From: Lactiplantibacillus pentosus
Lineage (GTDB): Bacteria > Bacillota > Bacilli > Lactobacillales > Lactobacillaceae
DNA length: 64,000 nucleotides
Assembly (NCBI RefSeq): GCF_003641185.1
Contig: NZ_CP032757.1
Span: 2,604,001-2,668,000, forward strand
Reading direction: 5' to 3'
Of the stretch, positions 6,691 to 56,048 are shown piece by piece. A program made the position numbers and the translations under genes. Each line of letters begins with the position of its first letter. The stretch's first letter is position 1. Under the pieces are notes generated by a model. That model did not search any database. It was not told where the DNA came from and saw nothing but the letters and a program-made list of their open reading frames with translations.

Positions 6691-6729
6691 CCAGCATCAA
6701 CCTAGCGACAATATGCCGTACGACTACGC

Positions 6730-7700
6730 ACGTTGCGCTAGTTATGATTTGGTATTAAAAATGGTTGAAAGGTGCTGGTTCTCAAGTTCAAAAGCAGCCA
6801 GCTGAGAACCGCTGGAAACAAAACAAGTTAGCGTAAACCTGTCGTGTTGTTCGTCCTACACCGGCTTCCAGGTATTTCTGACAACGCTGGAACGCGATGG
6901 ACACAGATTTAAGCCGAAAGCCCACGTCTTAAATACTGGTCTTCCACTAACCAAGCAAAGGACGCTTGCTAAGTGGAATTTCATCGCTGAGCATTGTCAG
7001 AAACACCTTCCAGCCTGGGTTGTATTCGAAAGGCAGACATGTGTGGACCCAACTTTTTATTGGATTAGTCTTTGATTCCTTGGTACACGGGAATTTTGAT
7101 ATTGAACTTTCAGATTGGTTTCTAACAATCGCTAAACGTTCTTAACCAGGTTTTAGCTTTTCGAATCAGCGACTCCACACAACTTGTCAGAACTTTTCCT
7201 AGTTATCTGAGATAGCAAAATCTTGAATTCTCAATGAAGATAATCTTATCGACTAAATCCAAGACCAGTTGCTATTGAAGTTGGTGGCATGATGAGTGAA
7301 TAATATTTGCTAATCTTCTCAGCAATTAAATGCCATAAGTCATTATCGATACTGATTAAGAGCTTTCCTGAAGGACCAGCCACCTAATATTCAGTGATCA
7401 ATTGTACCCAGATAGGTGGCCGTTCATCCGCCATTCGAACGGCTTCCCGACTGTAGGGGCCGGCTGACAATGCTCAAGGGCGAAATTCTTCTTGTCCGGG
7501 TGGGTTTCCCGGGCTAGAAGAAGACTCGTATTTGAAATTGCGCAGTGGGTTTCTGCGTGAGTTCAAATCGATGTCCGCCCTGTTCCAGCGTTGTCAGCCG
7601 GCCCCGGAAGTCGGATTAGGACGCATCTTTGGCTGACGAACAGAAATCCAACCAGCACCTTTCAACCATGATTCATGCCACATCAATGAGTACAATGCGT
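6730..7700. repeat. large non-coding structured element, copy 1
   Basis: This 971-bp stretch has no plausible ORF and is repeated at 55143-56048. Its ends are complementary: ATGGTTGAAAGGTGCTGGTT (6761-6780) is perfectly inverted at 7650-7669, and an outer ACGTTGCGCTAGTTA relates to the TTGTGCTAGTTA termini of the other copies. Inside are two roughly 200-nt modules in inverted orientation (6854-7050 plus; 7415-7621 minus). They share CTGACAACGCTGGAAC, a GATTTxAA stem and a GAGCATTGTCAG closing strand. Outer module stems are 6875-6888 with 6990-7003, and 7456-7474 with 7587-7605. The central part (about 7070-7380) is poorly conserved. It may be a large RNA or a foldback mobile element; no described family is recognised. 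Confidence 0.75.
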
Positions 7701-32263: not shown

Positions 32264-32631
32264 TTTTTGTATAAAAACAATGCTGCGATATTGACAAGTC
32301 AATGAGAGAATCCCCTCATAATGCCTAGCAATTTTGCTACAATCACTCATCGCTTTAGCCGTGATTCACAAGGACAAAAAAAGGCGCGTATCAGCCATCC
32401 GAAAATGGTCAACACGCGTCTATTCACGGCACTGGCAAAGCCAGCGGGGGTGACACTCCACAATGTCAGTGACCCAAGCACTCTGAAATACGTCAGAGAA
32501 ACGTGCCCCGCTATCAATATTAGTCACTAGCCGCTCGCGCGGAACCGTTATTACTAACGATCTGACTCTATCGACTCATCGCAAGAACAACCATAACATC
32601 CTAATCTCTAAAATGCAAGGTAGCCGCAAAA
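32264..32631. other. intergenic stretch, nothing recognised
   Basis: About 370 bp between two terminators. A 69-codon frame at 32321-32530 lacks a ribosome site and recognisable homology. Confidence 0.4.
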
Positions 32632-54600: not shown

Positions 54601-54885
54601 TTACGCATTTGGATCATTCAGCCAATCAGCGACTTCTTGGGAATCTTTGAACGCGATTACTGGTATATCTTCAGTAGCCTTTAAAAAGCGTAAATTAGCT
54701 TTTTCTTCCTCACTTAAAGACACATCGAAAGGCAAAGCACCATTAGCAACGATCCGCTTGTAAAGCATGTTAATCGCCGTTGTTTGGTTTAGACCCAGTT
54801 CACTTAAAATTGCTTCAACATCATCAACCAAATCCTTCTCAATCTTAACTTGTACCCATCGCTTTTCCTGAGCTGCCATAATCAT
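54601..54885 (-). CDS. RelB/DinJ-family antitoxin, orphan
   Basis: A 94-residue protein. Residues about 5-45 form a ribbon-helix-helix (WVQVKIEKDLVDDVEAILSELGLNQTTAINMLYKRIV), followed by a tail with LPFDVSLSEEE typical of RelB/DinJ, and a C-terminal segment that would wrap a toxin. ATG 54885 follows GAGAGGG. No RelE/YafQ-type toxin gene is next to it; the flanks are an unrelated gene on the other strand and the structured element. Confidence 0.8.
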   Translation of the reverse strand: MIMAAQEKRWVQVKIEKDLVDDVEAILSELGLNQTTAINMLYKRIVANGALPFDVSLSEEEKANLRFLKATEDIPVIAFKDSQEVADWLNDPNA

Positions 54886-54937
54886 ATCGCCCTCTCGCTT
54901 ATTACCACTATTACACCACCTTTGGGGTACCACTTCA

Positions 54938-55142: not shown

Positions 55143-56048
55143 ACGCGTTGTGCTAGTTATTCTTTAGCCTTAAAGATGGTTAAATCATGACAATTTCTAA
55201 GTTCAAGTGCTGTCAGCTGAGACCCGCTGGAAAAAGTGCGACTTAGCGTAAACTTGCTGTTGTGGAGACGTCCTAGGCCGGCTTCCAGGCATTCTGGGCA
55301 ATGGCCGTGACGTGGTGGACACAGATTTAAGCCGAAGCCCACGTCTTAAATACTGGTCTTCCACTAACCAAGCCAAAAACGCTTGCTAAGTGGAATTTCA
55401 CCACTGGGTCTTGCCCCGAATACCTTCCAGCCTGGGATGGTATTCGAAAGGCGGACATGTGCGGACCCAACTTTAAATGAACTAGTCGTTGATATTTGGC
55501 ACACGCCATGTTGACATTCGGCTGTAAGACTGGCAAGTTTCTTGATTATCCTGTTGTATTTCAATTCTGCGAATCTTCAGTATTACTGAAGGTTGTATAG
55601 ATTTTGTCTACTCGCCTGAGGTAACAATATGCTAAGTGAAGCCAGGACTATCGACTAATTTCATGGCATTTTACCAACATTTAAATGCGACAAATCAGTG
55701 TAATTCAAAGTTTACTTGAAGTTACAGCAACTAAATATTCATTGGCCAATTGCACCAAGATAGGTGGCCGTTCATCTGCCATTCGAGCGGGTTCCCGACT
55801 GTAGGGGCTGGCTGACAATGCTCAAGGGCGAAATTCTTCTTGTCCGGGTGAATTTCCCGGGCTAGAAGAAGACTCGTATTTGAAATTGCGCAGTGGGTTT
55901 CTGCGTGAGTTCAAATCGATGTCCGCCCTGTTCCAGCGTTGTCAGCCAGCCCCGGAGGTCGGACTAAGGCGCGCATCGGCTGACGAACAGGACGCCAACT
56001 TGTCATGATTTAACCATGAATCATGACAAGTTAACTAGCACAATGCGT
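55143..56048. repeat. large non-coding structured element, copy 2
   Basis: This 906-bp copy has the same layout and orientation as 6730-7700. Outer ends ACGCGTTGTGCTAGTTA and TTAACTAGCACAATGCGT are inverted with one mismatch. Inner complementary ends are ATGGTTAAATCATGACAA (55176-55193) and its perfect inverse (56000-56017), different in sequence from copy 1 but equally paired. Modules lie at 55271-55468 (plus) and 55763-55969 (minus), with outer stems 55291-55301 with 55411-55421, and 55804-55822 with 55935-55953. By eye the right module is about 95% identical to copy 1, the left about 80%, and the centre is poorly alignable. A second hairpin, TTGTCATGATT/AATCATGACAA, at 56000-56029 competes with the end pairing. 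Confidence 0.75.

What the first reader, a model, noticed from the sequence alone, without database searches (positions are those of the whole stretch)
6730..7700. A roughly 0.9-1.0 kb non-coding element present in two full copies
6730-7700 and 55143-56048 share ends, internal layout and long similar blocks, have no plausible ORF, and lie in the same orientation. By eye the right block is about 95% identical while the centre has diverged, which is unusual for a recent simple duplication. I do not recognise it as a known insertion sequence or RNA family. ROOL and GOLLD RNAs are comparably large and occur in Lactobacillales, so they must be excluded first.
Basis: partly seen in the sequence, partly recalled or inferred. 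Interest (0 to 1): 0.85.

Follow-up and report, generated by a model that had tools for sequence, protein, structure and literature searches.

The report
Flipping, IS982-type mobile DNA repeat
The two non-coding stretches are copies of a jumping DNA element of about 0.95 kb that sits in about 80 places on this lactobacillus chromosome, has the ends of a known transposon family, turns its inside around in place, and carries a mirrored pair of branched DNA folds of unknown function that recur in many Lactobacillaceae.

Summary
Copies measure about 0.7-1.1 kb, carry no ORF of 70 aa or more in the window, and lie between 17-bp inverted ends (ACGCRTTGTGCTAGTTA). Two are missing at clean empty sites in a related genome. 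15 of 61 copies keep a target duplication of 5 bp or more (1.2 expected), usually 8 bp. IS982-family insertion sequences in related genomes have the same ends, so the best reading is a non-autonomous, IS982-mobilised (MITE-like) element. No Rfam family matches. Three features are unusual. (1) The interior holds two inverted three-way-junction modules of about 140 bp, found in 119 of 397 Lactobacillaceae genomes (15 of 40 genera) and in no other family in the order and class samples. (2) Module stems covary strongly with almost no G-U pairs (32 cells, against 93 A-C and 3794 Watson-Crick), which argues for a DNA fold rather than an RNA. (3) At sites occupied in both members of two genome pairs, the interior is inverted in 12 of 20, the window's first copy included. 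Past mobility and inversion are well supported; transposition in trans is inferred; module function is unknown.

The parts
6728..7700 (+). Copy 1 of the element, end to end; strand = orientation of the interior
   Evidence: Terminal repeats at both ends and alignment to 60 other copies
6728..6744 (+). Left 17-bp terminal inverted repeat of copy 1 (4 mismatches to ACGCATTGTGCTAGTTA)
6763..6780 (+). Inner inverted repeat, left arm (18 bp, exact complement of 7650-7667)
   Evidence: Sequence; crossover zone by comparison of other copies with their counterparts
6870..7010 (+). 5' three-way-junction module of copy 1
   Evidence: Covariance model R1, 150.7 bits; this copy helped to build the model
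7454..7605 (-). 3' three-way-junction module of copy 1, inverted
   Evidence: Model R1, 137.9 bits
7650..7667 (-). Inner inverted repeat, right arm
   Evidence: Sequence
7684..7700 (-). Right terminal inverted repeat of copy 1 (4 mismatches); followed by GACTA, also found beside the left end (weak duplication trace)
55143..56048 (+). Copy 2 of the element, end to end
   Evidence: Terminal repeats with 1 and 0 mismatches; no target duplication seen
55143..55159 (+). Left terminal inverted repeat of copy 2
55178..55193 (+). Inner inverted repeat, left arm (16 bp, exact complement of 56000-56015)
   Evidence: Sequence
55288..55427 (+). 5' three-way-junction module of copy 2
   Evidence: Model R1, 128.9 bits; part of this stretch helped to build the model
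55802..55953 (-). 3' three-way-junction module of copy 2, inverted
   Evidence: Model R1, 139.4 bits; also in the model's alignment as L075
56000..56015 (-). Inner inverted repeat, right arm
   Evidence: Sequence
56032..56048 (-). Right terminal inverted repeat of copy 2

Best explanation
A non-autonomous DNA transposon, i.e. an unusually large MITE. Shown by sequence: a 0.7-1.1-kb unit between 17-bp inverted ends, inserted between genes with a target duplication that is usually 8 bp, and with ends shared with IS982-family insertion sequences. Inferred: an IS982-type DDE transposase from such an insertion sequence moved it in trans. Shown: two three-way-junction modules in inverted orientation, with stems kept by Watson-Crick covariation, and an interior that is found in either orientation between the ends, the switch lying in a short inner inverted repeat. 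Inferred: arms and modules fold when the DNA is single-stranded or as a cruciform; strand switching or recombination in the arms inverts the interior and keeps the two arms of a copy alike; the conserved unpaired bases of the modules are read by a protein that helps the element spread or persist. That protein is not identified.
For: At least 81 copies. Duplications of 5 bp or more in 15 of 61 copies against 1.2 expected, and of 7 or more in 7 against 0.06. Clean empty sites at L062 and L084 and at one G003 site absent from G005. End repeat equals the published IS982 consensus AC(N)6T(N)5TT. IS982-type elements with paired ends of the same kind at 14 of 17 loci examined (one of them, L320, weak; L330 repeats L318), with clear 7-9-bp duplications at 4 of the 14. 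Covariation: 96.7% paired cells, 35 of 37 pairs with double changes, score 0.614 against 0.178 in shuffles. G-U 32, A-C 93, Watson-Crick 3794. Interior inverted at 12 of 20 sites occupied in both genomes compared; both end arrangements within the own genome (AB 22, BA 9).
Against: Only a truncated piece of the partner transposase was found in the own genome, so present mobility there is not shown. 10 of 14 IS982-type loci show no clear duplication. Beyond the end repeat I saw no likeness between the element and six IS982 copies, so it is not a simple deletion product. At 0.95 kb it is larger than typical MITEs (<500 bp). Many inverted interiors are no closer to their counterpart than to other copies; only L059 and L065 (inverted) and L044, L046, L054 (same) are clear orthologous interiors, so exchange between copies contributes. 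In modules of low divergence at shared sites, single changes that make or break a pair (32) outnumber double changes (7), so selection in place is not shown. In the own 3' modules G-U exceeds A-C on the + strand (43 against 7).
Confidence: 0.85

Rival explanations
1. A large structured non-coding RNA family, spread by transposition; each module is an RNA domain.
For: Very strong covariation; slightly lower folding energy on the + strand (-419.8 against -407.8); G-U above A-C on the + strand in the own 3' modules (43 against 7).
Against: No Rfam match. G-U makes up 32 of about 3960 cells, against 21 of 328 stem pairs in tRNAs from the same DNA. The second module is the reverse complement of the first in its conserved unpaired bases, so no single transcript shows both alike. 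Interior orientation varies.
Confidence: 0.1
2. The Watson-Crick stems need no selection: template switching between arms copies one arm onto the other, which also gives inversions and double changes without G-U steps.
For: The two inner arms of a copy change together between species, as at L038; 7 double changes in low-divergence modules, where independent change would give well under one (my estimate).
Against: Conserved unpaired bases and the same branched form in many genera need selection on something.
Confidence: 0.3
3. The inversions are assembly errors in draft genomes.
For: G016 has about 50 contigs and the interior is a repeat.
Against: The near-complete pair G003 (main contig 3.13 Mb) and G005 (3.24 Mb) also has 3 of 5 shared sites inverted. 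Both end arrangements occur within the own genome of 2 contigs. At L065 the inverted interior is 95.1% identical over 1039 bp.
Confidence: 0.04
4. A REPIN/BIME-like repeat moved by a Y1 (HUH) transposase, with the IS982 ends a later addition.
For: Inverted pairs of structured units; other genera have module pairs without these ends.
Against: Ends and target duplications in Lactiplantibacillus are those of a DDE element. No RAYT search was made.
Confidence: 0.12

Closest known systems
IS982 family of insertion sequences, e.g. ISLpl4 of L. plantarum (985 bp, 8-bp duplication; PMC7335449 section 4)
   Same: End consensus AC(N)6T(N)5TT, length near 1 kb, duplications of mostly 7-9 bp
   Different: No transposase; interior unrelated in the six copies compared
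Prokaryotic MITEs (PMC10969869, passages and section 2.1)
   Same: Non-coding, intergenic, terminal repeats, target duplications, probably moved in trans
   Different: About 0.95 kb instead of under 500 bp; conserved module pair inside, found beyond the genus
Correia repeat enclosed elements of Neisseria (inversion mentioned in PMC10969869; original paper not read)
   Same: High-copy small transposon relatives that can invert in place
   Different: Unrelated ends and interior by recall; not compared here
REPIN/BIME repeats (recalled)
   Same: Inverted pairs of structured DNA units in extragenic space
   Different: Three-way junction of about 140 bp instead of a short hairpin; DDE-type ends and duplications
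ROOL, GOLLD and other large RNAs
   Same: Size, complex predicted fold
   Different: No covariance-model match, few G-U pairs, mirrored modules

Membership tests
IS982-mobilised MITE | Terminal repeats of an IS982-family element | tested here: met
   Same 17-bp repeat at IS982-type transposase genes, 0-3 mismatches at the best loci; fits the published consensus
IS982-mobilised MITE | Target duplication of the partner's length on insertion | tested here: met
   15 of 61 copies with 5 bp or more, 1.2 expected; two clean empty sites; partner duplications 7-9 bp at 4 of 14 loci
IS982-mobilised MITE | No transposase gene of its own | tested here: met
   No ORF of 70 aa or more in either window copy
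IS982-mobilised MITE | Partner transposase in the same genome | tested here: inconclusive
   Own genome: only the last 79 residues on contig C2; relatives in 14 other genomes of 41 searched, several with stops
IS982-mobilised MITE | Interior derived from the partner by deletion | tested here: not met
   No likeness beyond the end repeat by eye in six IS982 copies
IS982-mobilised MITE | Small size, typically under 500 bp | tested here: not met
   0.7-1.1 kb; typical size
IS982-mobilised MITE | Transposition in trans | not testable with these tools
   Needs an assay
ROOL/GOLLD and other Rfam RNAs | Covariance-model match | tested here: not met
Structured RNA | Pairs kept through G-U intermediates | tested here: not met
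   G-U 32, A-C 93, Watson-Crick 3794; tRNA control 21 of 328 G-U. The alignment was fitted to the model
REPIN/BIME | Inverted pair of structured DNA units | tested here: met
   Convergent pairs in own copies and at many loci of other genera
REPIN/BIME | Cognate Y1 (RAYT) transposase | not tested
   No search made

The most novel reading that the evidence does not exclude
The three-way-junction module pair is a new kind of DNA-level repeat of Lactobacillaceae, selected as a folded single strand or cruciform and read by an unknown protein. It has been packaged between different transposon ends in different genera, and its arms drive continual inversion at about 80 sites per chromosome in Lactiplantibacillus.
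Probability: 0.35. Interest if true: 0.85.

Novelty: new variant of a known kind. Interest (0 to 1): 0.62.

Why it matters
It accounts for roughly 2% of this chromosome (81 copies of about 0.95 kb in 3.67 Mb, my estimate) and yields a covariance model that finds the repeat across many genera. It is a natural many-locus system in which DNA rather than RNA folding can be read from covariation and in-place inversion can be measured. Intergenic inversions could also change the surroundings of neighbouring genes between strains.

Tried and rejected
Known RNA families: rejected. A gene partner beside the copies: all-against-all comparison of ORFs in 61 loci gave one cluster spanning 9 loci, not identified or pursued, and otherwise clusters of two loci among those printed. 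Target-primed copying, suggested by the long duplications at L084 (16 bp) and L079 (17 bp, 8 bases away from the left end): set aside once exact ends gave a mode of 8 bp; L079 stays unexplained. Paired ends around an autonomous copy on the own chromosome: none convincing in the 100 places listed of 155; the spans that looked too long held only element fragments. Phage carriage: the module pattern has 0 matches in viral contigs, one exact pattern only. Target duplications at the Lapidilactobacillus ends: none clear. Plasmid search with the L030 type: no match.

Literature: ten searches. Judging by titles and abstract openings of the listed rows (20 of 142, 15 of 237), none describes this repeat; I did not open the other papers. 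Read: PMC7335449 (outline, passages, section 4) and PMC10969869 (passages and section 2.1). Subscription papers are not held, so absence from print is not shown.

Full report
WHAT IS THERE. They are two of at least 81 copies on the main contig of the genome: 61 aligned copies, a second copy in locus L081, 17 further ones of 336-1108 bp and two model hits outside any fetched locus. Two fragments (L291, L292) are not counted. The true number may be higher, because the genome searches score only part of their candidates. Searching for the 17-bp end ACGCRTTGTGCTAGTTA with up to 3 mismatches gives 155 places against 24 for the reversed pattern.

WHERE IT OCCURS. By plain DNA comparison it is found in 14 of 60 genomes, the own one included, all of one genus. 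A covariance model of its structural module (R1) finds it in 119 of 397 genomes of the family, own included, in 15 of 40 genera. In the order sample 24 of 395 genomes match, all of this family. In the class sample only the own genome of 299 matches. Large samples were scored with stricter filters, so weak matches may be missed. Of at least 120 stretches with an exact module pattern in named GTDB contigs (the scan stopped at its limit), the 80 listed are all Lactobacillaceae: Lactiplantibacillus, Levilactobacillus, Companilactobacillus, Lapidilactobacillus, Lacticaseibacillus, Liquorilactobacillus, Schleiferilactobacillus, Limosilactobacillus and an uncultured Lactobacillus. Viral contigs: none. 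Plasmids: 26 records, 19 Lactiplantibacillus and 7 Ligilactobacillus. A 273-bp stretch of the own small contig is identical in L. pentosus, L. plantarum and Pediococcus plasmids, so the species is not settled.

IT HAS MOVED. Flanks of 18 of the 61 copies could be placed in 0.8 Mb of the related genome G016. Four sites looked empty there. Two are clean, with a duplication in the occupied genome: TCTTATTA at L062, and 16 bp at L084, whose left end lacks a few outermost bases. The other two (L052, L087) keep scraps of an element. In all 61 copies, 15 have an exact duplication of at least 5 bp at the ends (1.2 expected from swapped pairings) and 7 have at least 7 bp (0.06 expected); the usual length is 8. 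Copy 1 of the window shows only a 5-base trace and copy 2 none. A G003 copy absent from G005 has the duplication GGTTCAGCG. The window's copy 1 is absent at the corresponding place in G005 and G003. At copy 2 the related G016 has lost the element except its right end, together with neighbouring DNA.

WHO MOVES IT. One end repeat, on the genome's 49-kb second contig, lies at the 3' end of a truncated transposase frame that stops inside the repeat. Relatives in L. plantarum plasmids are annotated as IS982-family transposases and match the Pfam model DDE_Tnp_1_3. Relatives of this protein occur in 15 of 41 genomes, the own remnant included. Of 17 loci examined, 14 distinct ones have paired ends of this type (L320 weakly; L330 repeats L318). 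Clear 7-9-bp duplications stand at 4 of the 14: L315, L318, L319 and L322; the other ten show none. L322, in G016, has ends with 0 and 1 mismatches and spans 977 bp. The published IS982 end consensus is AC(N)6T(N)5TT, mean length 996 bp, duplications 2-10 bp; ISLpl4 of L. plantarum has 8 bp (PMC7335449 section 4). ACGCATTGTGCTAGTTA fits. That such a transposase moved the element is inference. Beyond the end repeat I saw no likeness to six IS982 copies.

WHAT IT CARRIES. Inside are two modules of about 140 bp, one on each strand, facing each other; each folds as a stem branching into two hairpins. In the own loci the model gives 119 matches over 61 sources, two counted twice because L075 repeats the window's second copy; some copies keep only one recognisable module. 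At loci of other genera convergent pairs are common, and tandem arrangements occur. In 111 modules, 96.7% of cells pair, 35 of 37 pairs have changes on both sides, and the covariation score is 0.614 against 0.178 for shuffles and at most 0.096 for slid structures. That alignment was fitted to the model. In the MAFFT alignment of 28 modules, not fitted to it, 25 of 37 pairs also show double changes. Leaving out one column pair that reads G-T in 107 of 110, there are 32 G-U cells, 93 A-C, 3794 Watson-Crick and 42 others. In 15 tRNAs from the fetched DNA, 21 of 328 stem pairs are G-U (that tool requires pairs, so only the G-U share compares). In the own terminal repeats G-U and A-C are equal (105 and 104), as in decaying DNA. 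In the own 5' modules they are 26 and 29. In the own 3' modules G-U exceeds A-C on the + strand (43 against 7), which does not fit a strand-blind DNA fold. On balance I read a DNA fold.

IT FLIPS. Of 14 sites occupied in both the own genome and G016, the interior is inverted between the ends at 8 (L038, L055, L059, L065, L072, L090, L093, L095) and in the same orientation at 4 (L044, L046, L054, L092); L083 is mixed and L064 does not align. The window's copy 1 is a fifteenth site and inverted. At L065 the inverted interior is 95.1% identical over 1039 bp. Only at L044, L046, L054 (same) and L059, L065 (inverted) is the counterpart the best match among own copies, disregarding L081, whose two copies add up; elsewhere other copies match as well or better. 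So exchange between copies accompanies inversion. In the near-complete genomes G003 and G005, 14 elements lie in 400 kb of G003; 12 sites could be placed, 5 are occupied in both, 3 inverted and 2 not. Together, 12 of 20 shared sites are inverted, 6 are not, 1 is mixed and 1 unalignable. The outer ends are of two types, A and B, and stay with the flanks. The switch lies in a short inner repeat whose sequence differs between copies but largely matches between the two arms of a copy. In the own genome the end types read AB 22, BA 9, BB 2, AA 1, unresolved 27 of 61. Inversion of Correia elements in Neisseria is a published parallel (named in PMC10969869).

CONSTRAINT. Between own copies the modules diverge less than the middle: medians 5.6% (3') and 13% (5') against 28%. 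At 13 shared sites, orientation corrected, totals are 10.2% (5'), 13.7% (3') and 24.6% (middle). In modules of low divergence 32 single changes make or break a pair and 7 pairs changed on both sides. Whether each copy is under selection in place is open.

HOW IT MAY WORK. Most likely a selfish element moved by IS982-type transposases. Arms and modules fold in single-stranded DNA; recombination or strand switching in the arms flips the interior and keeps the arms alike. The conserved unpaired bases suggest a reader protein; none was found, nor searched for directly. In Lapidilactobacillus bayanensis the module pairs have other shared ends (CTARAACTGTTATGTTG-like), so the module pair is either older than its present vehicle or has been re-packaged.

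GENE CONTEXT. By a simple ORF call, 40 copies lie between co-directional, 15 between convergent and 6 between divergent neighbours; the genome's own proportions were not measured.

VERDICT. A real, high-copy, invertible transposon-like DNA repeat: a new variant of a known kind (IS982-type MITE) with an unusual structural cargo of unknown function that recurs across the family.

Noticed in passing
window 32453-32583, - strand: A match to the Rfam family Ref68 (Lacto-3 RNA), 96.3 bits; the only Rfam match at gathering score in the window.
   Followed up: no
Lapidilactobacillus bayanensis loci L182-L241: Module pairs there sit between other shared terminal repeats (CTARAACTGTTATGTTG-like), without clear target duplications.
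   Followed up: partly
L106 4000-4710 (L. plantarum plasmid) and L032 (G016): Copies that lack the 5' module cleanly, apparently by deletion between two TTCCAG repeats at its foot.
   Followed up: no
L079 (own genome, near C1:524353-525292): A 17-bp direct repeat flanks the element, but its left copy stands 8 bases away from the end.
   Followed up: no
L046, L054 against G016: The 3' module differs by 14-17% at sites whose other parts are orthologous, as if one module type had replaced another.
   Followed up: no
L108 (Ligilactobacillus salivarius plasmid pR2): The 3' half of the element, 90% identical to the window copy, lies on a plasmid of another genus, beside a short transposase-like frame.
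   Followed up: partly
window 54601-54933, - strand: A 110-aa frame next to copy 2 lies in the stretch missing from G016 together with most of that copy.
   Followed up: no
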